A stretch of DNA of 64,000 nucleotides from Rhodospirillales bacterium BBD 1991-14 (GTDB taxonomy: Bacteria; Pseudomonadota; Alphaproteobacteria; Kiloniellales; Kiloniellaceae): NCBI GenBank assembly GCA_001657395.1, contig LYSY01000008.1:310001-374000 (forward strand), in the 5' to 3' direction. The notes beneath the pieces were generated by a model, which was not told where the DNA came from, did no database searches, and saw nothing but the letters and a program-made list of their open reading frames with translations. Below are positions 41,531 to 60,353 of this stretch, in pieces. The position numbers were made by a program, and so were the translations under genes. The first letter of the stretch is position 1. Each line of letters begins with the position of its first letter.

Positions 41531-41832
41531 CGCGGGGCTCCGAGGATGTGCCGGCCAAGCAGCCGGGCTTCTCGTCTCAGTCGACCATCGGTAGGACCGG
41601 CCAGACGCGCTTGTCCAGGTTGGAGATGTTCATGAACATCTTTTCGCGCGGAATGATTAGGTTTGGGACCGCCGTCCTGCGCTCTTTGGGCCCGGGCGAT
41701 CTTCATGAGCTGCGTCAGGCGCGTGCGGCCATAACCGAAGCGTGCGCAGATCTCCTTCCAGGTCACCTTCTGCTCGCGCAGCTGCAGGACCTCGACGCCC
41801 ATCGAAAGATGGCTGCGGCAGGGGCGGCCCAT
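41527..41832 (-). CDS. Putative HTH protein between terL and portal
   Basis: This ~101-aa gene starts in a TGATG overlap with terL and ends in an ATGA overlap with the next gene, which supports its reality. Residues about 25-45 (VTWKEICARFGYGRTRLTQL) look like a helix-turn-helix. The C-terminal half is Arg/Gly-rich and not convincingly folded. The shared palindrome at 41625-41640 lies inside it. It could be a regulatory protein or a terminase accessory; low support for details. Confidence 0.55.
   Translation of the reverse strand: MGRPCRSHLSMGVEVLQLREQKVTWKEICARFGYGRTRLTQLMKIARAQRAQDGGPKPNHSARKDVHEHLQPGQARLAGPTDGRLRREARLLGRHILGAPR
41625..41640. promoter_or_regulatory. Shared phage palindrome, copy B
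   Basis: GATGTTCATGAACATC is a perfect 16-bp palindrome. The sequence around it partly matches copy A at 23491 over about 45 bp. It lies about 95 bp upstream of the small gene preceding portal. A dyad-binding regulator or an internal late promoter is possible. Confidence 0.5.
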
Positions 41833-43346
41833 CACAGCCGCGCCCGCGTCTGACGGCCGCGCCGATAGAACGCATCGCGGTAAGAGCCTTGCGGGTTGCT
41901 CTCGGTCCGCGCCGCCGTCTGCGCCGTGGTGTCGTAGCGCTCCCGATCCCGCCCCATCACCTCGTGATACTCGCCCCCGCCGATCAGCGCATACTGCGCC
42001 GAGTCGTGGACGTGGCTGTAGTCGCCGCTCTTCCCGGTCTTGTCCGGCTTGTCATCGTAGCCGCCGTTGGCGGTCTGCACCCGCTTGTAGCGGTAGCCGG
42101 AATTGAAGCCCTTGCGCAGGATCTTCATGCTCGGGCAGATGATCAGGCCCGGGTAGTGGCCGTCGATGTTCTTCGTCAGCGGCACCCGGACCGCATCGAG
42201 GCGCGGTGTCAGGTTGTTGGTCGGCGCGGCGCGAATGCGCATCTTGGTCTTGGCCGCGACGATCTGTATCCAGTCGCGTTCGTCGTTGTCTCTGTCGGCG
42301 CCGAAAGCCGCCGAAGGATCGGCCCAGCCGGAGACCTGGTGGCCCGGGAACTCTTCGCGCAGGATCTTGTTGACGAGCTCGCCGAAGCGGGTCGGCCCCA
42401 TGGTGCTCTCGTTGGTGACCACGATCTCGCGCAGGCCCCGCCATTGGCCGTTGGGCATGCGCTGCCACACCGTCGCCGCTGGCGTCCCGCCGGCGTCGAA
42501 GCCCATGACAAGGGGAAGGCCCTTCACCGCGATCAGGCGCTGCAGCGAGCAATGGAGCTGGTCGTTGTACTCCGGGTAAACCGGCTTGCCGTCGCGGCTG
42601 AACCCGAATTCATTCTTGATGAAACGGCGAATGTACCAGTCCTTCTGACCGGCCATCTGTTGATCGTAGTAACCCTGTACGAGGTTGTGCAGGTTCTCGG
42701 CCTGCGGCGAGAGGCCGGACGGTTGGCGAAAGAACCCCCAGCTGTCGGGCTTGTTTTCGACTAGGAGCTCGTAGAGATAGCTGTCCGTGTCCGGTGCGTT
42801 GAAGTCCATGATCACACCGCGCCAGGTGGGCCCTCCCTCAGCCATCTTGGGATAGCGGCCGGCGCGCCCGATGCAGTACGTCAAAACGTCGGGGTGCAGC
42901 CGGTCGGCCTCATTGAGATAAAACGCCGTGACTTCGTAGCCCTTTAGCACGTCCTCCGCTTTGTGCTCGCCGATGGCGACGAAGTCGACCCAGAGAAATA
43001 CGGTCGTGCCGTCCGGCAGCTGGAACTTGATCTTGTGCGTCGCTGGACCATCTTGCGAACCAACCCACTCGCCAATCGACTGCGGCATCCACTCGTTCCA
43101 GGTCGCGATGGTCGTCTTCCAGAGCTGCCGGTAAGTGTCGCGGACGACGCAGAAGCGGAACTTGCGCTGGCCGTCCAGCGTTGAAGGCTGCTGCTCCGCT
43201 GCCTGGTAGATCATGCGGAAAAAGCTGGTTGTGGTTTTAGCGCCACCCAAAGGCCCCATGATCGCATCGAGGAAGTTGCGGCTGACAAAAAACGCCCGCG
43301 CAACCGGTCCCGGCGACTCCCAGCGAAGGTTTAACTCGTCGCTCAC
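41832..43346 (-). CDS. terL: Terminase large subunit
   Basis: The packaging motor, 504 aa from a GTG start. The ATPase has a Walker-A-like GPLGGAKT at residues 31-38 and a Walker-B/catalytic carboxylate region VTAFYLNEADRL. The nuclease domain shows aspartates in LVMGFDAGGTPAA and GWADPSAAFGADRD. I chose GTG 43346 because it forms a GTGA overlap with a preceding frame and is preceded by a G-rich site; an ATG at 43403 is the alternative. terS lies upstream after a gap of about 300 bp. Confidence 0.9.
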   Translation of the reverse strand: MSDELNLRWESPGPVARAFFVSRNFLDAIMGPLGGAKTTTSFFRMIYQAAEQQPSTLDGQRKFRFCVVRDTYRQLWKTTIATWNEWMPQSIGEWVGSQDGPATHKIKFQLPDGTTVFLWVDFVAIGEHKAEDVLKGYEVTAFYLNEADRLHPDVLTYCIGRAGRYPKMAEGGPTWRGVIMDFNAPDTDSYLYELLVENKPDSWGFFRQPSGLSPQAENLHNLVQGYYDQQMAGQKDWYIRRFIKNEFGFSRDGKPVYPEYNDQLHCSLQRLIAVKGLPLVMGFDAGGTPAATVWQRMPNGQWRGLREIVVTNESTMGPTRFGELVNKILREEFPGHQVSGWADPSAAFGADRDNDERDWIQIVAAKTKMRIRAAPTNNLTPRLDAVRVPLTKNIDGHYPGLIICPSMKILRKGFNSGYRYKRVQTANGGYDDKPDKTGKSGDYSHVHDSAQYALIGGGEYHEVMGRDRERYDTTAQTAARTESNPQGSYRDAFYRRGRQTRARL

Positions 43347-43693
43347 AGCAGCCCCCCAACCCCGTTGGCGCGACTTTGCTGTTTCGCCGCCACACTCCCC
43401 CACCCTTGTGGCGAGGCCTTGAGTTTTCGCGCCGTCAGGATCTCCAAACAGGATCGAAGCGACCCAGTATTTCCGAAAGCTGCCGGAGCCTCCCCCCCGC
43501 TCCCATCGGCAGCGGCGGTTTTGGGGGGGTGGGGTGGCTTCGAAGGGGGGTGGGTCTGGCGGCGGCCGCGCGGCCAGGTCGCGGGGCCTAGCGTCAGAGT
43601 GTGCATCTGCCGCGCCAACAGCCGAAAGGCGCGGAAACCCTGGCGTTTCGGCCCGTTGTCCAACTCGCGACTGTCAAACTCTCCGGAGCACAT
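43343..43693 (-). CDS. Possible gene between terS and terL (doubtful)
   Basis: A 116-codon frame fills the terS-terL gap. It begins 4 bp after the terS stop and ends in a GTGA overlap with the terL start, which is suggestive. Its product has a Pro/His-rich, low-complexity middle (THPPSKPPHPPKTAAADG) and no recognisable fold. The DNA there is G-tract-rich, so a non-coding packaging site is at least as likely. Confidence 0.3.
   Translation of the reverse strand: MCSGEFDSRELDNGPKRQGFRAFRLLARQMHTLTLGPATWPRGRRQTHPPSKPPHPPKTAAADGSGGEAPAAFGNTGSLRSCLEILTARKLKASPQGWGSVAAKQQSRANGVGGLL
43523..43554 (+). other. G-quadruplex-type tract in the terS-terL gap
   Basis: On the plus strand four G-runs of 7, 4, 6 and 3 are separated by loops of 1, 10 and 1 nt. 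Such a layout can fold into a G-quadruplex. It lies between the two terminase genes, a usual place for packaging signals. Confidence 0.5.
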
Positions 43694-43697
43694 GGCG

Positions 43698-44222
43698 CTA
43701 ACCCTCTGTTTTTTCTGGCTTTTCGGAATTCAGGACCTGGCCGGTGATCACCACCGCATCATCGCCCGGCTGCGCCACCGGCGCGGCCTCGGCGGGCCCT
43801 GTCTGGATCGTGAGCGACACCGGCGGCTTGCCCTGGATGTCGAGCGCGACCGGCTGCTTCTGGTGCAGGTACGGCGCCAACTCCTTCGCGGCCATGATCT
43901 GCAGCTTGAAGGCCTCCACACGCTTGCAGTCCAGGCGGGCCGCCAAGTCTTCGACGCGCGCCGCCACGATCTGGGCGAGCGCTTCCAGCGGCGAGCGGTA
44001 GTTGGACAGCAGGAAGCTGGTCCAGGCCTCGGTCCGCTTGTTCCGAGATCCGGCAGGCCGACCAGGTCCGCGCCGGTCGGCCTCGGTCGCCTGCTCGTCT
44101 TCGTCCAACGGCAGCGGAAGCAGGGCCAGCTGCTCGGCCTTCTCTTCCGGCGCCATCTCGCCGACCTGATCCATGGCTTCGGTCAGGGCCGCGTTGAGAC
44201 CTTCCTTGTCCTGATCAGCCAT
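43698..44222 (-). CDS. terS: Terminase small subunit-like protein
   Basis: This 174-aa protein begins with an acidic helical segment. A DNA-binding-like motif RRGPGRPAGSRNKRTEAW and a long helical middle (LEALAQIVAARVEDLAARL) follow; the C-terminus is beta/Pro-rich. GRPAGSRNK is common in small terminase subunits. It is the first gene of the minus-strand virion operon, ahead of terL, and it sits beside the GTTGCA repeat cluster that could be its recognition site. The start is an ATG following an AT-rich stretch with CAGGTG. Confidence 0.8.
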   Translation of the reverse strand: MADQDKEGLNAALTEAMDQVGEMAPEEKAEQLALLPLPLDEDEQATEADRRGPGRPAGSRNKRTEAWTSFLLSNYRSPLEALAQIVAARVEDLAARLDCKRVEAFKLQIMAAKELAPYLHQKQPVALDIQGKPPVSLTIQTGPAEAAPVAQPGDDAVVITGQVLNSEKPEKTEG

Positions 44223-44257
44223 TAAACACCTGATATTTAATTGGTTTTCCGGCTGGC

Positions 44258-44497
44258 GTTGCAGCCGTTGCAGCGGCGTTGCAGGAAATCAGCCGATAAA
44301 CCATTGATCCCTTTACCTTTTTACCTGTCTGCAACGGTGCAACGGCTGCAACGGTATTCCTCGCACGTATGCGCGCGCGTGCGCGCGCGTCTGCGACCCT
44401 GCATTTACCGTTGCAGGCGTTGCAGTGCCTTTTTCCTTAATGATGGCAGTGACTTAGCTGCAACACTGGCTTGTTGCAGGCTGTTGCACCCGTTGCA
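44258..44497. repeat. Iteron-like cluster of GTTGCA/TGCAAC hexamers
   Basis: Twelve copies were found. GTTGCA starts at 44258, 44267, 44278, 44410, 44419, 44473, 44483 and 44492; TGCAAC starts at 44330, 44338, 44347 and 44459. Within clusters the spacing is 8-11 bp, about one helical turn, and orientation is uniform in each cluster. Such phased arrays are typical of replication iterons, packaging (cos/pac) binding sites or cooperative regulator sites. It sits beside terS. Confidence 0.75.
44362..44390. other. Perfect alternating purine-pyrimidine tract (Z-DNA type)
   Basis: Twenty-nine bases alternate strictly between pyrimidine and purine, mostly CG and TG steps (two GCGCGCGCGT units after CGCACGTAT). 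This favours left-handed DNA under negative supercoiling. It lies in the middle of the hexamer array. Confidence 0.65.
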
Positions 44498-44580
44498 CCT
44501 TAAACCGCTGGTGCGAACAACCCCGCGCCGCTTCGCGAACTGATTGATCCAATGGGTTTGAGGGCGCGGAGACAAAAAAA

Positions 44581-44660
44581 GAGAACTGAATTCCCTTCTC
44601 TGTGTTGACAAAGGGAACTGTGTTCCCATATCCATGAAACGCAATGGGAACTGAATTCCC
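44581..44660 (+). promoter_or_regulatory. Early promoter with three phased GGGAA-N5-TTCCC operators
   Basis: Three 15-bp sites are at 44581-44595 (one arm mismatch, GAGAA), 44613-44627 and 44646-44660. The middle of each is CTGAA or CTGTG. Centre spacing is 32 and 33 bp, three helical turns. A consensus -35 TTGACA lies at 44605-44610 and the second operator fills the spacer; the -10 near 44627-44633 (CATATC) is poor. The third operator is just before the ribosome binding site of the first early gene. A repressor bound here would shut the plus-strand early operon. Confidence 0.72.
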
Positions 44661-44682
44661 TTTCTTATTGAGGAGAGCAGCA

Positions 44683-45150
44683 ATGCAGCTTGTGTTTGAA
44701 CCCCTTGCCGATGGTGGCTGGCTCCACCGCAGCGACCGCAGCCAGGCCTATGGCCAATGGATCGGCCTAGACCCGACTGACCTGCAGTCGATTGATCGCG
44801 CGTTCTCCCAGGTCCGCAGCGCGGGCTGGGATGAGGGCTACGACCAAGGCCACCATGACGGCAAGGTCGCCGGCAAGGCGGAAGCCGAAGAGGACGCCAT
44901 CGACTACGAGCAGGCCTACGGCGAAGGCCGTGCCGAGGGTCTTGATGCCGGGCGCGCCCTGGGATCGCTTCATGGCGCCCATGAAGTCTCCGAGAACATC
45001 CTGGAGCTTCTGGACCACCTGGACGATGACCCGCAGATCTTGCGGAAGCTGCGCCGCCAGCTGCGCGCGGACCTGCGCCAGTACCAGACGAAAGTCGATG
45101 AGCTGGAGCGCATCGAGAAGCGGATCGAGGCCGCGCGCGATGCGGCCTGA
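44683..45150 (+). CDS. Hypothetical early phage protein (coiled-coil)
   Basis: This is the first gene of the plus-strand early operon, 155 aa. The N-terminus is globular (VFEPLADGGWLHRSDRSQAYG). An acidic/His-rich repeat-like helix (GWDEGYDQGHHDGKVAGKAE, then YGEGRAEGLDAG) and a C-terminal coiled coil (KVDELERIEKRIEAARDAA) follow. No family is recognised. The start has GAGGAG upstream. Its promoter is the operator-covered one just before it, so it is expressed when the repressor is lifted. Confidence 0.62.
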   Translation: MQLVFEPLADGGWLHRSDRSQAYGQWIGLDPTDLQSIDRAFSQVRSAGWDEGYDQGHHDGKVAGKAEAEEDAIDYEQAYGEGRAEGLDAGRALGSLHGAHEVSENILELLDHLDDDPQILRKLRRQLRADLRQYQTKVDELERIEKRIEAARDAA

Positions 45151-45226
45151 CCGCAGCGGCCCGGCGGCGCTGGCACGCCGTCCGGGCCCGATCACAGCCA
45201 ACCCCTTGCAACAGGAGAAACCGACC

Positions 45227-46072
45227 ATGACCGAGAACGATAAGACCAACTGGTACGAAGAGAAGCAAGAGCGGCGCCGGGAGCGCCTGGAGGCCCGTGC
45301 CGAGAGGGCGGACGCCGAGGCGCGGCGGCGCTTCAAAGCGTCGGATGACGCAATCGCCGGCATTCCCCCGGGCCAGCCCATCCTTGTGGGCCATCACTCC
45401 GAAGGGCGACACCGGCGCGCCCTCGATCGCTGCCACAACCACATGCGCAAGGGACTGGACGCCCAGAACGACGCCCGCCACCTGCGGGGCCAGGCTGCCG
45501 CGGTGGGTACGGGCGGCATCAGCAGCGACGATCCGGAGGCTATCGCCAAGCTGCGCCAGAAATTGGCGAGGCGCGAAGAAGCGCAGCGCCTGATGGTCGC
45601 GACCAACAAGGCCTGGCGGACCTGGAACAAGAACCCGGAGGCGCCGGCGGCACGCAAGGCAATGGAGGCTCTGCCTCAGGCCATGCAGGAACGGGTCAGG
45701 GCCTATGATCCGGAGCAGTGCTACAGCTGGGAGCGCAAAGGGCCTTTCCCAAGCTACAGCCTCAGCAACAACAATGCCGAGGTGCGGCGGCTGAAACAGC
45801 GCCTGGCGCAGCTGGAAGCTGCGGCCGAGCGGCCCGCGGTGCCGGATGTCCAGGGCAAAGGCTATACCCTGCGCGAAAACCAGGACATCAACCGCATTCA
45901 GTTCCTCTTTGACGGCAAGCCGCCCCCCGCGGTGCGCCAGGAGCTGAAGGGTCGGGGATTTCGCTGGGCACGGTCGGAAGGCGCCTGGCAGCGTCAGCTG
46001 AACAACAGCGGACGCTGGGCCGCGCAATGCGTCGTCGACGACCTGGCAAAGCTCCAGGCCGAGGAGGACTGA
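45227..46072 (+). CDS. DUF3560 domain-containing protein
   Basis: This 281-aa protein has the conserved DUF3560 start: a charged helix (WYEEKQERRRERLEARAERA) followed by GQPILVGHHSEGRHRRALDR. A coiled-coil middle follows. The C-terminus (QFLFDGKPPPAVRQELKGRGFRW) resembles the small domain that ends many DUF3560 proteins and plasmid or phage ssDNA-associated factors. DUF3560 is common on plasmids and phages; the function is not established. Start supported by AGGAGA. It is in an early operon with its neighbours. Confidence 0.8.
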   Translation: MTENDKTNWYEEKQERRRERLEARAERADAEARRRFKASDDAIAGIPPGQPILVGHHSEGRHRRALDRCHNHMRKGLDAQNDARHLRGQAAAVGTGGISSDDPEAIAKLRQKLARREEAQRLMVATNKAWRTWNKNPEAPAARKAMEALPQAMQERVRAYDPEQCYSWERKGPFPSYSLSNNNAEVRRLKQRLAQLEAAAERPAVPDVQGKGYTLRENQDINRIQFLFDGKPPPAVRQELKGRGFRWARSEGAWQRQLNNSGRWAAQCVVDDLAKLQAEED

Positions 46073-46075
46073 GCC

Positions 46076-46345
46076 ATGACCACAGACTACCAAAACGAAC
46101 TGGTCGACCGCTGCGCTCCGCGTTGGGCCTGGGAGGTCATCGACGAAACGCTTGCCGCAGACGCTTTGTCCTCCGCCTTCGATCCGACCCTGCGCCAGCA
46201 AATCCAATTGGCACTCGAAGCCATGATCCAGGCCTGCGCCGGCGAGACCATCTGCGAAGAGTGCGGTGAGAGCGTAGAGGAGATCATCGGCTGTCCGGAC
46301 GGCGCAGAGATTTGCCAAGACTGCTTTGACGCGGGTCACCACTGA
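46076..46345 (+). CDS. Small protein with C-terminal zinc ribbon
   Basis: This 89-aa early protein has a helical N-terminus and a C-terminal CEEC...CQDC pair (residues about 60-83), a treble-clef or ribbon-like zinc site. It lies 3 bp after the DUF3560 gene and is followed by a strong terminator, so it ends the early operon. DNA or protein binding is likely; the partner is unknown. Confidence 0.65.
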   Translation: MTTDYQNELVDRCAPRWAWEVIDETLAADALSSAFDPTLRQQIQLALEAMIQACAGETICEECGESVEEIIGCPDGAEICQDCFDAGHH

Positions 46346-46356
46346 CCCACCACCTA

Positions 46357-46384
46357 GGCGGGGGCTTCGGCCCCCGCCGTTTCT
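46357..46384 (+). terminator. Strong intrinsic terminator with UUCG loop
   Basis: A perfect 9-bp stem (GGCGGGGGC/GCCCCCGCC) closes on a TTCG tetraloop and is followed by GTTTCT. It ends the short plus-strand early operon. It lies upstream of the small Cro-like gene, which may be reached by readthrough. Confidence 0.8.
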
Positions 46385-46402
46385 GTGATAGGAGTCCCGC
46401 TC

Positions 46403-46600
46403 ATGAGCACCGACCTGAAGAAGGCCCGCGAGACCTTGGGCCTGACCCAAGAGCAGATCGCTACCCGCCTGGGCATCACCCGGAAGTGGTGGGGCACGAT
46501 GGAGCGGGGCCAGGCGGCGGTGCCGCCGACCGTCGCCCTGGCCGTTGCCCAGCTGCTCACACTGCACGCTCAAAACCCGTCTCCCCCTTCGTCCGACTGA
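46403..46600 (+). CDS. Small XRE-family (Cro-like) HTH protein
   Basis: This 65-aa protein is almost only a helix-turn-helix (ARETLGLTQEQIATRLGITR, then KWWGTMERGQAAVPPTVA). It has the size of phage Cro-type or antitoxin-type regulators. A GGAG site precedes the ATG. It follows the terminator of the early operon and converges on the helicase gene, overlapping it by 31 nt. It could bind the GGGAA-N5-TTCCC operators upstream of the early operon, but this is only inferred from location. Confidence 0.75.
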   Translation: MSTDLKKARETLGLTQEQIATRLGITRKWWGTMERGQAAVPPTVALAVAQLLTLHAQNPSPPSSD

Positions 46601-48429
46601 GCGGGCGGGATCACCTGGTCGTAGGGAACCAGTACGCAGCGCGAGGCGACGCCGGCGAAGCGCAGGTTGCCCCGCTGCGCCCCCTGGACGCGCTCCAGGG
46701 CCTGGACCCAGACGCCGGTGGTCCCGGCGCGCTTCGACCAGATCGTGTCCCTCAGCAGCCCCGCCAGGCCGTTGTGGCTGTTGGCGAAGGCGACCCACTC
46801 CCCTTCCGGCTTGGCGCGCCCGCCCGCTGGGTTCAAGACATAGCGCATGCCATAGGTGCCGAGGACTTCCTGCGCCTTGCTGGCGCCGCCTAGACCGATC
46901 TGTTCGCTGCCGCGCCCCGAGGCCTCCAGGATGAAGGCGCCCACTGTCGTCTTGGTGCCGTCGCGGTAGGCATCGAGGACGGAGGTGCGGAGGTGGTCGA
47001 TCAGGTAGTCGTGGTTGCTCACCGCGTCCCGCGTCTCGGCGAGCGCCGCGGCCTTCAGTTTGTCGGCCCAGCCCTTCAGGACTTCGCTGTCGGGCGGGTG
47101 GTCGTCGAGCACCAGGTCGGCGCAGGCCAGGAGCGTGCCGAAGACATCGGCGCCGCGCCCGCCGTGCCCGGCGTTGACCGCGAGCTCCTGGCGGTAGGCG
47201 TCCAGGGTCTCGGCGAAGCGCGGCCACTGGTCGAGCATGCGCCGCCTGAGACGCGCGCCGAGCGCGCCCATAGACTTGGCGTCCATCTTCGGCGGGTCGG
47301 TGGCGTCGAGCCGCTGCAGGTCCATGATCGCCATGCGGCTGCGGTCCTGCGACTGCAGCGGCGGAATCAGGATGGAGGAAAACAGGAAGCAGGACCGCGC
47401 GACGAACTCGCTGCCGACGTGGTCCGCACCGCCGCGCAGCATCAGCGATCCGCTCGCCGCCAGGCGGGCCAGTTCCACCACCTTGTTGACACGGCGATTG
47501 TCCTCTTCGGCTTCGAGCTCGTCGAAGGCCACCGGCAGGGAGGCATGGCCGAGCTTCTGCCAGATGCCCGCCGGTGTCGCATCGGCGACCGAGACCAGGC
47601 CCTCGCCCAGAACCCAGCCGATGAGCTTGTGCAAGGTCGATTTGCCCGAGGCCGCATCGCCGGTGACCCAGGCGAGCGGGCGCCAGTCCAGGGCGCCGCC
47701 GACGATGGCCGCCGCGACCCAGCCCAGCAGCAGCTGCGCATCGGTGTCGCCGCGCTTCCAATTCCAGGTACTCAGCAGCGCCAGGAGCTCCGGGCCCGGC
47801 CCGGCGTCGCCGGCGGCGACGGCCTGGTCGCAGGGCCGGGGCTGCGCAGCGGCGGCGGGGTAGACGTACTTGCCGTCCGGCCCGGGGGCTTCGATCTCCG
47901 GGCGGGTGTGGGTCGCGATCACTTCGCCGGGCGGTCTTGACCGGATCAGCCCGTCGCCGACGTGGAACACGAGCTCGCCGGTTTCGCTGAGCCAGGCGCC
48001 GGGCCCGCGCGTGCGGCCCATGACATTCCACACGCCGCGTTTCGCCGCCGCCTCCATCAGCGCTTCGGCTGCCTGTTCGGGGCGCCATCCGGTCACCGCG
48101 CCTGACCTGTCGTGGCGCGGCCAGTGCGTGTAGAGCTCGTCGATCTCCATGCCGAACAAGCCCTGAATGTCAAGGCGTCCATGCTCGCGGGCCTTCAGCT
48201 CGCGCAGCTGGCGCGACGCATCGAGGTAGTAGTAGTAGCCGCCGTTGATGCCCAAGGGCTTGACGGGGCAGTCGTCAGGCAGCCTGCCCTTGCGCCTTGG
48301 GTTCACCGGCTGGTTGGGCCCTTCCGGCTCCGCCGGCGGCGGATCTTCCGGCGCCGGCGGCATGATCTCCCGCGCGTTGTCCATCACGCTGCGCACGGCG
48401 GCGATCCCGCTGTCTTCGGCGTCACTCAT
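46570..48429 (-). CDS. DUF927-like replicative ATPase/helicase
   Basis: This 619-aa protein carries a Walker A motif GDAASGKST at residues 257-265 and an acidic Walker-B-like FDELEAEE near residue 302. The surrounding pattern (AWVTGDAASGKSTLHKLIGW, then VADATPAGIWQKLG) is of the DUF927 / primase-associated superfamily 3-like type. The N-terminal ~170 residues probably load the enzyme. It works with the Toprim primase-like gene of the same operon, so it is probably the phage replicative helicase. The start is inside the overlap with the upstream membrane protein gene. Confidence 0.82.
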   Translation of the reverse strand: MSDAEDSGIAAVRSVMDNAREIMPPAPEDPPPAEPEGPNQPVNPRRKGRLPDDCPVKPLGINGGYYYYLDASRQLRELKAREHGRLDIQGLFGMEIDELYTHWPRHDRSGAVTGWRPEQAAEALMEAAAKRGVWNVMGRTRGPGAWLSETGELVFHVGDGLIRSRPPGEVIATHTRPEIEAPGPDGKYVYPAAAAQPRPCDQAVAAGDAGPGPELLALLSTWNWKRGDTDAQLLLGWVAAAIVGGALDWRPLAWVTGDAASGKSTLHKLIGWVLGEGLVSVADATPAGIWQKLGHASLPVAFDELEAEEDNRRVNKVVELARLAASGSLMLRGGADHVGSEFVARSCFLFSSILIPPLQSQDRSRMAIMDLQRLDATDPPKMDAKSMGALGARLRRRMLDQWPRFAETLDAYRQELAVNAGHGGRGADVFGTLLACADLVLDDHPPDSEVLKGWADKLKAAALAETRDAVSNHDYLIDHLRTSVLDAYRDGTKTTVGAFILEASGRGSEQIGLGGASKAQEVLGTYGMRYVLNPAGGRAKPEGEWVAFANSHNGLAGLLRDTIWSKRAGTTGVWVQALERVQGAQRGNLRFAGVASRCVLVPYDQVIPPAQSDEGGDGF

Positions 48430-48760
48430 CGGACAGGTCCCGCAAGTGGGCGCCAAGGCCGTGGTGGCGCACGCAGGCAAGCTCCGGGGAGAAGATCTCC
48501 ACCACGACGCTGCTATCGCCGGCGTCGCCGATGAAATAGGGCGCGAAGCCCTGGACCTCTTCGTCGAAGACGACCGCCGCGACCCCACAGCGCATGACCG
48601 GGATGTCGATCTCGCCCTGGGCCGGCGAGGCTTCGGCGGCCAGAACACCCAGCAGGAAAGCATAAACTCCAGTGAGCACGAGGATCGTGCGGATCGCCCA
48701 CTTCCAGCGTGTTTCGGTTGGGCGCATCGCACCGATCACAAGATTGTGCAGCCAGGTCAT
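48422..48760 (-). CDS. Small membrane protein within replication operon
   Basis: This 112-aa protein has one transmembrane helix (ILVLTGVYAFLLGVLAA, about residues 26-42). A mainly acidic soluble domain follows that would face the periplasm or cytoplasm depending on topology. The family is unknown. Coupled by ATGA to the methyltransferase upstream and by an 8-bp overlap to the helicase downstream. It may be a superinfection or host-modifying factor. Confidence 0.58.
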   Translation of the reverse strand: MTWLHNLVIGAMRPTETRWKWAIRTILVLTGVYAFLLGVLAAEASPAQGEIDIPVMRCGVAAVVFDEEVQGFAPYFIGDAGDSSVVVEIFSPELACVRHHGLGAHLRDLSDE

Positions 48761-49461
48761 GCTGCGGCTTCCATGATCGCGTGACCGATGACCTCGGCCA
48801 TGTGCGGTGGGTTGCTGTCTCCAAGCGCTTCTATGCGCTCCTTTCTGGTCTTGCCGCCTTCTCCGGCAGACCGAGCATCCACTGGTAGAGATCCGAGCTT
48901 ATGCGGGTCCCAATCACCTCTGGCATCTGCTGCCCTCTTGACCCGCTCAATCGCGGATGGAACCGACTTCCAGGCGAGCGCCAGTCGCGACACGCAGGCG
49001 CCGGCAAGTATGAACACTCGCCGGCGAAGATAAGGCGCACCAACATCGCAAGCCGCAAACTCAAGTCGGGCTGAGCTGTACCCAGACGCACAAAGGTCAC
49101 CAGCGACTTGGGTTTCCCACGCCTTGTTTCCGGGTGGCTGTTCCACGACAACCCATTCTGCTGCCATGTCGTCGCGGCGGATGATGGCGAGCATGGTGGG
49201 CCACAACGATGTGCCAGACCGCCGGCCGTGCACGGCTGCGGCAACCGACGTAGCTTGGCACGGTGGCCCGCCGATGACGATTTCAACCTCGACTGAGGGA
49301 CAGGAACGCACGTCGTCATAGATGGGAACCTCCGGAAACCGCTTGGCCAGCTCTACCCGGCGCTCGGCTTTGATCTCGCAAAGCGCGGCCACCTTAATCC
49401 CGGCACGCTGCAGTCCGAGCGCATGACACCCGATGCAGGAGAACAGATCGAGCGCACGCAT
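48757..49461 (-). CDS. C5-cytosine DNA methyltransferase (short, phage)
   Basis: This 234-aa methyltransferase has motif I DLFSCIGC, motif IV GGPPCQATS with catalytic C68, motif VI VVEQPPGNK and motif VIII LRRRVFI. Typical enzymes are 320-400 aa; here the segment between motifs VIII and X is only ~60 residues, so the target-recognition domain is minimal. No restriction enzyme is adjacent. An orphan, perhaps protecting phage DNA against host restriction. It starts with a TGATG overlap after the primase-like gene (a GTG one codon earlier is possible). Confidence 0.86.
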   Translation of the reverse strand: MRALDLFSCIGCHALGLQRAGIKVAALCEIKAERRVELAKRFPEVPIYDDVRSCPSVEVEIVIGGPPCQATSVAAAVHGRRSGTSLWPTMLAIIRRDDMAAEWVVVEQPPGNKAWETQVAGDLCASGYSSARLEFAACDVGAPYLRRRVFILAGACVSRLALAWKSVPSAIERVKRAADARGDWDPHKLGSLPVDARSAGEGGKTRKERIEALGDSNPPHMAEVIGHAIMEAAA

Positions 49462-50534
49462 CACGCCACCCCCTCTTCCCGGCCCGACTGCCGCAGCAGG
49501 TCGTTCACGTCCTTCACGCCCTTCGGCGGGGCGAAGACGAAGACGCGCTTGCCGGCCTTAAAAAAGTGATCGATGGCCCGGGTCAGGTCGGCGGCGGCCT
49601 TCTTGTTGGCCCCGTCGTTCTGCTGGGCGATGTGGACCGCGCTCACCTGGTCGGGCAGCACCAGTTCCGCCATGGCGCCCAGCGAGACGGCGCAGAGCAC
49701 CATGCGCGACGGGTCGGCGACGGCGCAGGTCAGGCCGTCCTCGATGCCCTCCGAGATCGTCACCGCCGAGCCCTCAGGCACCTGGAACAGGCTCTTGTTC
49801 GCCGCCCCCTTCCACAGCCGGACGCAGCCGCCCTGATAGAGCCCGAGGGTGCGCTTGGCGTCGCGCAGCGGCGCCTTGGTCACCCGCCCGTTGCGGTGGA
49901 CCTGCAGGAAGGTGCGATGCACGGCTAAGAACTGGCCTTGCGGCCCGACGACGGCCGCCACCATGCCGGGCCAGGCAGTCTGGGTTTCGACCGAGTAGAG
50001 CTCCGGGTGATAGACCAGGGAGCGCGGCATGCGCGGCAGCCGCGCCAGGTCGATGCCGCGTTCGTCGCGCAGGTAGCGCTCCGCCGGCGTGCCGGCGATG
50101 GGCTGGGCCGAGAGATAAAGGCGCTGCGCCTGGCGCCGCCGCCGCTCGCGCTGCTCTTGCGCCCTGGCCTGCGCCTGGCGCTGTGCCGCTGCGGCCTCGC
50201 GCTTGCGGATCTGCAGCTGCTGCGGGGTCGCATCCTCCAGGCCAAGCCAGCGCTTGGCCCAGGCCACCGCGTCTTTCTTGTCGATCTGGCCGAGGTAGGC
50301 GACCAAGTCGAGGGCGTCGCCCTTGTCCCCCGTCGCGAACTCCGACCAGATGCCCCGCTTGGCGCCGGCAACGCAGATCCGGAAGGAGCCCGGATGCCGG
50401 TCCTCGCGGATCGGGTTCAAGACCACGTAGTCGCCGCTTTCGATGTGCCCGCCCGGGCAGAGCTGTTGCAGCAAGGCGTCCAGCTGATGCGTCAGCATGG
50501 CGACTAGGTCCTTGATGTCCACGGGCCGGGTCAT
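49461..50534 (-). CDS. Toprim-domain primase-like protein
   Basis: This 357-aa protein has an N-terminal region with LLQQLCPGGHIESGDYVVLNP and FRICVAGAKRGIWSEFATGD, similar to the N-terminal part of phage primases. A Gln/Arg-rich linker leads to a Toprim domain beginning VTISEGIEDGLT (Toprim Glu). The second acidic motif reads VHIAQQNDGANKKAA, where the usual DxD is reduced to a single Asp. The end KDVNDLLRQ is classical. It partners the DUF927-like ATPase in the same operon. The ATG at 50534 follows an AGGGA site. Confidence 0.82.
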   Translation of the reverse strand: MTRPVDIKDLVAMLTHQLDALLQQLCPGGHIESGDYVVLNPIREDRHPGSFRICVAGAKRGIWSEFATGDKGDALDLVAYLGQIDKKDAVAWAKRWLGLEDATPQQLQIRKREAAAAQRQAQARAQEQRERRRRQAQRLYLSAQPIAGTPAERYLRDERGIDLARLPRMPRSLVYHPELYSVETQTAWPGMVAAVVGPQGQFLAVHRTFLQVHRNGRVTKAPLRDAKRTLGLYQGGCVRLWKGAANKSLFQVPEGSAVTISEGIEDGLTCAVADPSRMVLCAVSLGAMAELVLPDQVSAVHIAQQNDGANKKAAADLTRAIDHFFKAGKRVFVFAPPKGVKDVNDLLRQSGREEGVA

Positions 50535-50721
50535 GGTGATGCGTCCCTGGGGCTTCGTCCGAAGGGCTCTCCCGAAAAGGCGGCGGTGCGGCCGCAATTG
50601 GCAGGGACAGCCGCACCGCCGAGTTCCAGGGAGAAACGCCCGTTGGGCGGTGGCGGCGCGTGGGGAGCGCCGCCCTTCACGGCGCGGGGGACGCGCCGGA
50701 AGCCCGATGTCGGCAGGCCGC

Positions 50722-52635: not shown

Positions 52636-52711
52636 TGGTCAGGGTGGCCGGGCTCGAACCGGCGGCCTCCGCGCTCCAAACGCGGCGCTCTCCCGACTGA
52701 GCTACACCCTG
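52636..52711 (-). tRNA. tRNA-Pro(UGG), phage-encoded
   Basis: The complement folds into a full cloverleaf. The 7-bp acceptor CAGGGTG/CACCCTG has the C1-G72 pair characteristic of tRNA-Pro. The D stem is GCTC/GAGC. The anticodon stem CCGCG/CGCGG encloses loop TTTGGAG (anticodon TGG). The T arm is GCCGG-TTCGAGC-CCGGC. Discriminator A and CCA are encoded. It lies inside the phage early operon between two protein genes. Confidence 0.93.
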
Positions 52712-58480: not shown

Positions 58481-58794
58481 CCCAGCTGATGAAGGCCCGC
58501 CAGGTGGCCGCGCGGCTGCAGGTCACCGTCGAGTGGTTCTACCGCAACCGGGCGCAGCTGGAGGCCGCCGACTTCCCCAGGCCGCTGCCAGGCTTTAAGC
58601 AAGGCCGCTGGTCGGCGGAAGCGATCGAGGACTGGATCAGCCGCGGCTCCGCCGGCGACCAGGCCGAACCGCCCGAGCCCGAGCCCCAGAGCATCGAGGA
58701 CCTGCAGGAGCGCCTGCGGGCGACCCTGGAGACGCGGGGCCGGAAGATCGCCGCCCGGGTCCACGCCAAGCGCGGCGCCGCCGGGCGCGCTTGA
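58477..58794 (+). CDS. xis: Excisionase-like MerR/AlpA-type HTH protein
   Basis: This 105-aa protein has an N-terminal winged helix of AlpA/excisionase type (MKARQVAARLQVTVEWFYRN, then FPRPLPGFKQGRWSAEAIEDW) and a charged tail. It lies directly before the integrase on the same strand, with an ATGA overlap to the previous gene. It probably controls direction of integration or regulates int. Confidence 0.8.
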   Translation: MTQLMKARQVAARLQVTVEWFYRNRAQLEAADFPRPLPGFKQGRWSAEAIEDWISRGSAGDQAEPPEPEPQSIEDLQERLRATLETRGRKIAARVHAKRGAAGRA

Positions 58795-58907
58795 CAGGGC
58801 CGTACAGGCCCAGGCGCAATAGCGCCCCCAAGGGCAGGATCGCCCGCGGCGATCCGCCCGGCACAGAGAGGGACAGCCGCGCACGCGCGGCGTCCAAGGA
58901 GACGCCC

Positions 58908-60119
58908 ATGGCCACGCGCAAGATCCGCTACCTCGCCCGCCGGCCAGGCGCTGGCGGCACCACGCGATGGTTTTGGCAGCCGTCCAAGACGCTCTTGGAT
59001 CAGGGCTTCCAGGCCATGCGCATTGCGCGCAGCGATCTGACCCCCTGGGGCAATCCGCCGCCGGGGCCCGTCTGCGATGCCGCCGATGCCTGGAACGCCA
59101 AGCTGGACGCCTGGCGCGACGGCAGCGGACCGCATCCCTTCGCCGACGACAATCCGGACCTCGCCGCTGCGGCGACGGAGCGGCGGCGCAAGACGCCGGC
59201 ACCAGGCAGCGTCGATGCCCTGATCGTCCGCTACAAGAAGTCGCGCGACTTCCTGAAGCTCGCCGCCTCGACCCAGAGGATGTACAGCGAGAATCTGGAG
59301 ATAATCTCCGAGTGGGCCGGCGACACCCATGTGCTGAGCCTGGACGTGGAAATGGCGCTGGACCTCTACGACGAGCTCCAGCCGGTAACGCCCACCAAGG
59401 CGAACCACGTCATGGCCATCCTGCGGCTGCTGTTCAGCTTCGCGCGGCGCCGGGGCAAGACCGAGCGGGTGCCCTTCAATCCCTTCAGGGAGCTCCGGCT
59501 GGAAGGGGTCCGCTCAAAGGCCCGCATCTGGACCCCCGAAGAGATCGACTGCTTTGTCTGGCACGCCGACCGCTTGGAGCGCTGGTCCGCCGGGACGGCG
59601 GTGATCCTCAACGAATGGGTTGGCCAGCGTGAAGGCGACGTGGTCGCCCTCGGCCGCGGCGTCTATGCGGACGGGGCTCTGCGCTTCGTGCAGTCCAAAT
59701 GGAAGCAGGAGGTTTATCTTCCCGTTGACCTGGTCCCGCGCCTGCTCACCCGGCTGCAGGAGGAAGCCGCGCGTTGGGCTACCCGCCCGGTAACCCCCAC
59801 CACGCTGATCGCCTCGGAACGCACGGGCCGGGCCTACACGGTGGACGCCTTCGGGCATGTCTTCCGGGAGGTCCGCGCGGCCGCCGCCAAGGACCGGCCT
59901 GCCATGGCCGAGCTCTGGTTCATGCGCCTGCGCCACACCGCCGTCGTCCGCCTCGGCGAGGCCGGCGTGAACATCCCCCAGATCGCGGCGATCACCGGCC
60001 ACAGCCTGGCGACCTGCCACGCGATCCTGGAGCGCTACAACGTGCGCACCAGGAAGATGGCGATCTCCGCCTTCCAGCAGCGCCTGGAGGCCGAGGGTCG
60101 GGACCGCGACAAGGGCTAA
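58908..60119 (+). CDS. int: Tyrosine-recombinase integrase
   Basis: This 403-aa integrase catalyses site-specific recombination between attP and the tRNA-Leu attB. It has an N-terminal arm, a SAM-like core-binding domain (TQRMYSENLEIISEWAG) and a catalytic domain. The domain shows Arg in WVGQREGDVV, Lys in FVQSKWKQEV, Arg in RLRHTAVVRL and the GHSLATCHAILERY end with the nucleophile Tyr. The canonical H of HxLR is replaced (WFMRLRHT). AGGAG 7 nt before ATG 58908 supports this start; a TTG at 58791 overlapping xis is the other possibility. It stops ~150 bp from attR. Confidence 0.93.
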   Translation: MATRKIRYLARRPGAGGTTRWFWQPSKTLLDQGFQAMRIARSDLTPWGNPPPGPVCDAADAWNAKLDAWRDGSGPHPFADDNPDLAAAATERRRKTPAPGSVDALIVRYKKSRDFLKLAASTQRMYSENLEIISEWAGDTHVLSLDVEMALDLYDELQPVTPTKANHVMAILRLLFSFARRRGKTERVPFNPFRELRLEGVRSKARIWTPEEIDCFVWHADRLERWSAGTAVILNEWVGQREGDVVALGRGVYADGALRFVQSKWKQEVYLPVDLVPRLLTRLQEEAARWATRPVTPTTLIASERTGRAYTVDAFGHVFREVRAAAAKDRPAMAELWFMRLRHTAVVRLGEAGVNIPQIAAITGHSLATCHAILERYNVRTRKMAISAFQQRLEAEGRDRDKG

Positions 60120-60265: not shown

Positions 60266-60322
60266 TTGGTGCCCCTGGCCTGACTCGAACAGGCACTCCC
60301 TTGCGGGAAACAGATTTTGAGT
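60266..60322. repeat. attR: 57-bp copy within the intact tRNA-Leu gene
   Basis: Identical to 20819-20875. Here the phage-supplied core completes the 3' part of the tRNA gene whose 5' part (60323-60353) is chromosomal. The core reaches from the CCA end to the anticodon loop, the common crossover area for tRNA-targeting integrases. Confidence 0.95.
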
Positions 60323-60353
60323 CTGTCGCGTCTACCAATTCCGCCACAGGGGC
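60267..60353 (-). tRNA. tRNA-Leu(CAA)
   Basis: The complement folds as a class II tRNA. The acceptor is GCCCCTG/CAGGGGC. The D arm contains GGCGGAATTGGTAGACGC. The anticodon stem ACAGA/TCTGT encloses loop CTCAAAA (anticodon CAA). A long variable arm (TCCCGCAAGGGA), the T arm GCCTG-TTCGAGT-CAGGC and an encoded CCA complete it. It is the prophage integration target and remains intact after integration. Confidence 0.97.

What the first reader, a model, noticed from the sequence alone, without database searches (positions are those of the whole stretch)
44258..44497. Twelve phased GTTGCA/TGCAAC hexamers beside the terminase gene
Between terS and the early promoter I count twelve copies of one hexamer or its complement in 240 bp. 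They form clusters of uniform orientation: three, three, two, one and three copies, with 8-11 bp between starts in each cluster. This is about one helical turn, as for cooperative protein binding. No other spot in the window shows this. Candidates are the TerS recognition (pac/cos) site, a replication origin with iterons, or a regulator array. The position next to terS favours packaging; the position between divergent modules favours an origin.
Basis: partly seen in the sequence, partly recalled or inferred. Interest (0 to 1): 0.7.

Follow-up and report, generated by a model that had tools for sequence, protein, structure and literature searches.

The report
Phage replication origin with swappable repeats
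Twelve copies of a six-letter DNA word beside a prophage's packaging gene look like the start site for copying the phage's DNA, read by the tail end of its helicase; related phages use other words at the same kind of place, and the word tends to change together with a few amino acids of that helicase.

Summary
The array is real: 12 GTTGCA copies at 44258-44497, the densest hexamer cluster of the window. Relatives keep the array but not the word: of 201 non-redundant loci with the same helicase or TerS family, 164 have a strong mixed-strand hexamer cluster (one is a coding repeat; 0 of 164 pass once it is masked), with many different words, nearly all GT plus four bases. Arrays are GC-poor, with an AT-rich island and an alternating purine/pyrimidine tract, and mostly lie just upstream of terS.

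Which protein reads the word? The best windows for predicting it are at the C-terminus of the D5/SF3-type helicase; TerS has the poorest best window, though its whole-protein AUC is the highest of four. With relatives left out, the best of 1454 protein columns for motif positions 4, 5 and 6 lie in the last 45 helicase residues. In isolated phage phi1422 the array follows the primase, 7.2 kb from terS.

Best reading: a replication origin whose iterons are bound by the helicase C-terminus, working like SaPI/PICI rep-ori replicons, rather than a TerS pac/cos site. Binding and origin activity are inferred, not shown.

The parts
44258..44497 (.). iteron array: 12 GTTGCA/TGCAAC copies; candidate replication origin
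   Evidence: de novo cluster log10E -16.4
44258..44283 (+). iteron cluster, three copies (44258, 44267, 44278)
44330..44352 (-). iteron cluster, three copies; convergent with the first cluster across an AT-rich gap
44410..44424 (+). iteron cluster, two copies
44459..44464 (-). iteron, single copy
44473..44497 (+). iteron cluster, three copies
44294..44323 (.). AT-rich island between the first two clusters (67% AT; window 33% AT); candidate melting site
   Evidence: family trend
44362..44390 (.). 29-nt alternating purine/pyrimidine tract (Z-DNA-prone type), longer than in shuffled arrays in 148 of 150 related arrays
43698..44222 (-). putative small terminase subunit (TerS), 174 aa; 35 bases between its start codon and the array
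41832..43340 (-). putative large terminase subunit (TerL); start codon approximate
46570..48429 (-). D5/SF3-type primase-helicase (619 aa), proposed initiator that binds the array; gene end 2.07 kb from the array
   Evidence: phrog_21086; phrog_35358 DNA primase; AF2 pLDDT 90.5; Foldseek: D5-type helicases, SaPI5 primase-helicase 7ola at rank 9
46573..46980 (-). C-terminal domain of the helicase (residues 484-619), proposed DNA-binding domain
46624..46713 (-). residues 573-602: helix plus beta-hairpin holding the residues that covary with the iteron (V575, G587, R590, A595)
49461..50597 (-). Toprim-domain (DnaG-type) primase-like gene of the same replication module
   Evidence: Toprim_3, DUF7146; phrog_510 DNA primase

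Best explanation
The array is most likely the phage's replication origin. Each GTTGCA copy is an iteron bound by the C-terminal domain of the phage's own D5/SF3-type helicase (46570-48429). Clusters of iterons in opposite orientation position helicase complexes on either side of an AT-rich island, which melts; an alternating purine/pyrimidine tract may absorb supercoiling. The helicase then loads itself and, with the Toprim primase of the same module, starts replication after induction. Across the phage group the architecture is kept while the iteron word changes, because a few residues of a helix and beta-hairpin near the helicase C-terminus change with it. Shown here by computation: array, conservation, architecture, covariation, gene neighbourhoods. 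Inferred: DNA binding, melting, self-loading, origin activity.
For: Strong clusters in 164 of 201 non-redundant loci (one, L359, is a coding repeat); with the cluster masked 0 of 164 pass the threshold, and 0 of 60 Markov-simulated loci do. Origin-like make-up of 150 arrays: GC below the locus in 149; best 30-bp AT fraction 0.729 vs 0.538 for random segments of the same loci, higher in 150; longest alternating Pu/Py run 22.1 vs 8.2 nt in mononucleotide shuffles. Word tracks the helicase: of 376 16-column windows in four proteins, with pairs over 50% identical left out, the three best for top-3-neighbour prediction are at the helicase C-terminus (best 0.298, AUC 0.708; base rate 0.080); best Toprim window 0.243, TerL 0.194, TerS 0.137. 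Single columns, relatives >=45% (or >=40%) left out: best of 1454 columns is helicase residue 595 for motif position 4, 575 for position 5, 587 for position 6, at both cut-offs (alignment indices 696, 676, 688). Residue-base pattern, residue sets chosen after seeing the table: R590-equivalent with C at position 5 in 40 of 43 (others 17 of 60); Y/W/M/L/I/Q/F there with G in 20 of 24; K595-equivalent with C at position 4 in 16 of 17, Q with T in 15 of 22. Natural pair L398/L404 (helicases 79% identical, 85% outside the C-terminus): T and Q at these positions with GTCTAA, R and R with GTCCCG. Isolated phages: array right after the primase in phi1422 with terS 7.2 kb away; just upstream of the primase-helicase in Acjo_20. 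Fold: SaPI5 primase-helicase 7ola at rank 9 of the PDB hits.
Against: In the window the helicase gene ends 2.07 kb from the array while terS starts 35 bases away; where both genes are present, 53 of 145 arrays are next to terS only and 8 next to the helicase only. Whole-protein AUC is highest for TerS (0.641; Toprim 0.632, TerL 0.617, helicase 0.611), and the whole helicase finds neighbours slightly better (0.331) than its best window (0.298), so part of the signal is general relatedness. Some Toprim and TerL columns also score well (TerL 478 0.309 bits at position 4); uncontrolled column scores are high in all four proteins, including helicase columns far from the C-terminus. Residue 590, the clearest by eye, is not among the seven best for position 5, and position 3 has no helicase signal there. 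Disjoint sister pairs: 590 ranks 12 of 1406 for position 5, 595 ranks 49 of 1406 for position 4. In close pairs the C-terminus differs more when words differ only above 60% identity (0.655 vs 0.502; below that 0.454 vs 0.437 and 0.355 vs 0.321). KLER1-1 breaks the position-5 pattern; no array in the 25.3 of 44.9 kb of PY223 that I held. The C-terminal domain has no significant PDB match. No experiment shows replication.
Confidence: 0.77

Rival explanations
1. Packaging site: TerS binds the hexamers (pac or cosB-like) and TerL cuts nearby, as recalled for the hexamer clusters on both sides of the P1 pac cleavage region.
For: Array -150..300 bp upstream of terS in 141 of 159; stays with terS in L131, where terS is separated from terL. 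Whole-protein AUC for same word is highest for TerS (0.641).
Against: Best TerS window and TerS nearest-neighbour accuracy are the lowest of four proteins (0.137; 0.139 against 0.361 for the helicase); no TerS column is the best for any motif position; arrays are 7.2 kb from terS in phi1422 and 3 kb before the DUF1441 gene next to the terminase in ZRG1; the basic TerS motif RR..GRPxGxxN is invariant in the five sequences aligned while the word differs.
Confidence: 0.12
2. Operator array: a phage regulator binds the repeats to control the late (terS) or the divergent early promoter.
For: Position between divergent transcription units; the array covers the region where a terS promoter would lie.
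Against: Three other repeats (GGGAACTGTGTTCCC type) sit at the TTGACA-like sequence before the early gene (promoter by eye); the word covaries with the helicase; an operator needs no AT island or alternating tract. Regulator proteins were not tested for covariation.
Confidence: 0.07
3. Dual site: the helicase-bound origin doubles as the place where packaging starts, which is why it is usually kept beside terS. This overlaps with the best explanation, so the confidences do not add up to 1.
For: Frequent terS adjacency together with helicase covariation.
Against: The gene order helicase - terS - terL explains much of the adjacency (75 of 145 arrays are next to both); phi1422 does without it.
Confidence: 0.15

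Closest known systems
SaPI/PICI rep-ori replicons (Ubeda et al. 2007 as cited in PMC7581432; PMC6092414)
   Same: D5-type initiator helicase, SaPI5 primase-helicase 7ola at rank 9 of the PDB fold hits; short iterons in sets flanking an AT-rich region; recognition assigned to the helicase C-terminus (passages read).
   Different: Full tailed phages (window: portal, TerL-like and major head genes), not satellites; array mostly beside terS and in the window 2.07 kb from the helicase; long alternating Pu/Py tract; many words in one protein family and a residue-base pattern; C-terminal domain without significant PDB match.
SCCmec Cch2 and its putative origin (PMC7581432, passages)
   Same: D5-type helicase whose isolated C-terminal domain binds direct repeats downstream of its gene.
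   Different: Three 5-nt iterons (AAGTG), region highly similar between elements; here a median of 10 copies per array and a word that changes from phage to phage.
Phage P4 alpha protein with ori and crr (recalled; P4 alpha is named in PMC6092414)
   Same: Primase-helicase initiator with C-terminal origin-binding domain and repeated short sites containing GTT (recalled).
   Different: Window helicase scores 11.7 bits against 108.7 needed for TIGR01613; the C-terminal domain model has no significant PDB match; among the 50 of 126 matches shown, winged-helix-type regulators appear only at E 3.7.
Geminivirus iterons and Rep (start of abstract in a search listing only, PMC12548392)
   Same: 5-6 nt iterons that often differ between close viruses and are bound by the cognate Rep.
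   Different: Single-stranded DNA plant viruses with a different kind of Rep.

Membership tests
SaPI/PICI-type rep-ori replicon | D5/SF3-type Rep helicase | tested here: met
   fold only: Foldseek to 7ola_A (SaPI5 primase-helicase) rank 9, E 4.8e-7, prob 1.00, TM 0.29 by query and 0.38 by target length; self-loading itself not testable
SaPI/PICI-type rep-ori replicon | origin immediately 3' of the rep gene | tested here: not met
   window: 2.07 kb away with + strand genes between; family: 87 of 150 within -150..400 bp
[quoted passage not shown]
SaPI/PICI-type rep-ori replicon | C-terminal domain of Rep recognises the iterons | tested here: inconclusive
   covariation supports it (weak); binding not tested
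SaPI/PICI-type rep-ori replicon | rep-ori supports autonomous plasmid replication | not testable with these tools
   needs a plasmid maintenance test
P4 alpha-type initiator | member of the P4-family primase C-terminal profile (TIGR01613) | tested here: not met
   11.7 bits, cut-off 108.7
P4 alpha-type initiator | winged-helix origin-binding domain at the C-terminus (recalled) | tested here: inconclusive
   136-aa domain model (pLDDT 88.6) has no PDB match below E 1; the slower aligner was not available
TerS pac/cos site | specificity determined by TerS | tested here: not met
   lowest best window and nearest-neighbour accuracy of four proteins; whole-protein AUC highest; no best column
TerS pac/cos site | close to terS | tested here: met
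   141 of 159; not so in phi1422 and ZRG1
TerS pac/cos site | virion DNA ends map to the site | not testable with these tools
   no virion reads

The most novel reading that the evidence does not exclude
A DNA-reading module without solved structural relatives, made of a helix and a beta-hairpin near the C-terminus of a phage D5-type helicase, reads GT-anchored hexamers through a simple residue-to-base pattern. It has diversified into dozens of specificities, keeping co-resident phages' replicons from firing each other's origins; the PICI-type origin is thus a general replicon of tailed phages rather than a hallmark of satellites.
Probability: 0.5. Interest if true: 0.85.

Novelty: new variant of a known kind. 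Interest (0 to 1): 0.72.

Why it matters
If true, origin, initiator and specificity residues can be read together from sequence in a large group of phages known mostly from prophages and metagenomes (all 23 phage-collection hits of the window helicase are below 60% identity and the two best are metagenomic scaffolds). [quoted passage not shown]

Tried and rejected
Rejected: (1) TerS as reader. (3) Phages with AAA_25 helicases (L030, L007, L113, L087; PriCT_2 also in L030 and L007) carry GTTGCA arrays after the helicase, but with C-termini that look unrelated; not followed, not counted. (4) Rfam: no RNA family at the gathering threshold in 43500-46700. (5) Sister-pair statistics: weak. (6) Solved structures by sequence: one P-loop match only at E up to 0.01.

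Rows dropped: 201 loci are what is left after removing loci with duplicate helicase or TerS sequences; each scan returned at most 80 of more matches (one search returned all 44). L359 was dropped because its top cluster is a coding-type repeat (a weaker GTTTCA cluster appears after masking). 45 of 148 arrays with a helicase have an ambiguous reading direction and were left out (Fisher tables). One search used 122 loci that have all four proteins. 37 of 201 loci had no strong cluster; in 23 of these the best, often chance-level, cluster is still within 900 bp of terS or the helicase. Searches used an earlier set of 111 loci: helicase C-terminal window first (AUC 0.683), Toprim window close behind (0.677). 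Of the 23 phage records hit by the helicase I fetched eight, all as partial stretches or short scaffolds.

Full report
What is there. The window (G000:C10:310001-374000, 66.7% GC) holds a prophage: an integrase-like gene (weak Pfam match) near a tRNA-Leu, a replication module, then terminase-like genes, portal (Pfam Head-tail_con, E 4e-113) and major head protein (phrog_3437). An IMG/VR contig of 40,253 bases encodes TerS, TerL and helicase 100% identical to the window's. The 12 GTTGCA copies at 44258-44497 are exactly as described. GTTGCA is not enriched in the window in general; close pairs of it are almost confined to this array in the whole genome (7 of 8 places).

Relatives keep the array but not the word. 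The nearest helicase relatives lack GTTGCA clusters, yet a search for any clustered hexamer found a different one in the three longer ones (L129, L130, L131); the fourth, L133, a 4.7-kb fragment without a terS match, shows none. I then collected relatives of TerS, TerL and helicase from viral contigs and looked de novo for hexamers clustered within 320 bp with at least two copies on each strand. Of 201 non-redundant loci 164 have a cluster with log10 E below -7.5. Controls: 0 of 164 with that cluster masked (six reach -4), 0 of 60 Markov simulations. In 162 of the 163 arrays kept, the conserved core holds GT followed by four bases. One search counts 55 different six-base words; a few contain an undetermined base and many have an ambiguous reading direction, so the true number is somewhat lower.

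Architecture. 150 arrays that have a TerS gene and at least six exact copies of the word: median 10 copies, mostly 8, 9, 11 or 12 bp apart inside clusters, orientations mostly alternating between clusters; array GC 0.522 against 0.643 for the loci (lower in 149); an AT-rich 30-bp stretch above the mean of random segments in 150; and an alternating purine/pyrimidine run of mean 22.1 nt against 8.2 in mononucleotide shuffles, at least 14 nt in 133. The window has a 29-nt run at 44362-44390 and an AT-rich island at 44294-44323.

Which gene does it belong to? The gap from array to terS start is -150..300 bp in 141 of 159 (17 at 300-1800, one elsewhere); from helicase end to array it is -150..400 bp in 87 of 150. 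With both genes present (145 loci) the array is next to both in 75, terS only in 53, helicase only in 8, neither in 9. By position alone terS wins. Six isolated phages with distant relatives of this helicase, of 23 records hit, were looked at in part: phi1422 (observed lifestyle lytic in the table of PMC3391216, identified by its 76 ORFs) has the array directly after its primase with terS 7.2 kb further on; Acjo_20 has it just before the primase-helicase, its terminase is not annotated; ZRG1 has it 4.6 kb after the helicase and 3 kb before the DUF1441 gene that precedes the terminase; KLER1-1 has a weak cluster right after the primase; MQ-4 a weak one about 1.7 kb after it; none in the 25.3 of 44.9 kb of PY223.

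Which protein reads the word? For 122 loci with TerS, TerL, Toprim and helicase I asked how well each 16-column window of each protein finds other loci with the same word, leaving out 190 pairs more than 50% identical. The best three of 376 windows are at the helicase C-terminus (best RVQGAQRGNLRFAGVA: top-3 0.298, AUC 0.708; base rate 0.080). Best windows elsewhere: Toprim 0.243, TerL 0.194, TerS 0.137. Whole proteins: helicase top-3 0.331, AUC 0.611; Toprim 0.227, 0.632; TerL 0.158, 0.617; TerS 0.109, 0.641. So TerS is poorest at finding neighbours but has the highest whole-protein AUC, and the whole helicase does slightly better than its best window. In the 103 arrays with an unambiguous word, single columns were scored by how well residue predicts base when all loci with helicase identity of 45% or more are left out. 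Of 1454 columns in four proteins the best for motif position 4 is helicase alignment index 696 (0.418 bits, next 0.309 in TerL), for position 5 index 676 (0.370, next 0.289 in Toprim), for position 6 index 688 (0.327, next 0.208 in the helicase); the same three lead at a 40% cut-off; for position 3 the best are Toprim and TerL columns at about 0.2. Index n is model residue n-101: A595, V575, G587 (letters checked). Residue 590 (index 691) shows the clearest pattern by eye: Arg with C at position 5 in 40 of 43, non-Arg with C in 17 of 60; aromatic or aliphatic residues or Gln with G in 20 of 24; residue 595: Lys with C at position 4 in 16 of 17, Gln with T in 15 of 22. These sets were chosen after seeing the table and the counts are over related sequences; 590 is not among the seven best columns for position 5. 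They fit the usual chemistry of Arg/Lys with G and Gln with A on the opposite strand (recalled). The disjoint-pair test puts 590 at rank 12 of 1406 and 595 at rank 49 of 1406, and the close-pair comparison is clear only above 60% identity. A natural pair is L398/L404: helicases 79% identical overall, TerS 78%, with T/Q against R/R at these positions and GTCTAA against GTCCCG as words; since TerS differs too, the pair alone does not exclude TerS. The five array-bearing isolated phages, not used to find the pattern, agree at position 5 in four cases by eye (phi1422, Acjo_20, MQ-4, ZRG1) and disagree in one (KLER1-1).

The protein. AlphaFold2 gives pLDDT 90.5 for the 619-aa helicase. Foldseek finds D5/SF3-type helicases, with low TM-scores (about 0.3 by query length), among them SaPI5 primase-helicase 7ola (rank 9, E 4.8e-7) and NrS-1. 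The covarying residues lie on helix 573-579 and on the hairpin 585-591/594-602. The last 136 residues alone (pLDDT 88.6) match nothing in the PDB below E 1 and two viral proteins well: one of Synechococcus phage S-CAM8 (E 5e-6) and an 838-aa protein without a listed name (E 0.0015).

Mechanism and known systems. [quoted passage not shown] If the present arrays are origins, that statement is too narrow, or the two are convergent. Because the window array is not directly after the helicase gene, I do not file it as a member but as something that works like it. I found no description of these phage arrays in searches (listings; an open-access library without preprints); the passages of PMC3391216 that I saw list repeats for three other phages and none for phi1422.

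Limits. No binding, replication or packaging was measured. TerS and TerL labels rest on weak profile hits and order. Regulators and other small genes were not tested for covariation, so a third reader linked to the helicase is not excluded. Motif direction is ambiguous in 45 of 148 arrays.

Noticed in passing
window 44578-44665: Three copies of a repeat with a 15-bp inverted core (GGGAACTGTGTTCCC type), 32-33 bp apart, around a TTGACA-like sequence upstream of the divergent gene at 44644-45150: a likely repressor operator set (promoter by eye).
   Followed up: no
L030 9361-9662, L007 9989-10187, L113 4072-4185, L087 1266-1540: Phages with AAA_25 (RecA-like) helicases also carry GTTGCA arrays, some with GTTGCAAC palindromes, after the helicase gene, though their C-termini look unrelated.
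   Followed up: partly
window 60267-60353: tRNA-Leu just after the integrase-like gene (58791-60119), possible attachment site; a tRNA-Pro lies further inside at 52636-52711.
   Followed up: no
L199/L319: The array without a GT core: word CTTCCCAA, otherwise a normal array.
   Followed up: no
window 48757-49464: C5-cytosine methyltransferase gene inside the replication module, between Toprim primase and helicase.
   Followed up: no
window 49464-50597: The Toprim protein matches the NCBIfam TraI profile over residues 70-367 (97 bits, far below its cut-off of 930), and its window KRTLGLYQGGCVRLWK is the best outside the helicase at predicting the iteron.
   Followed up: partly
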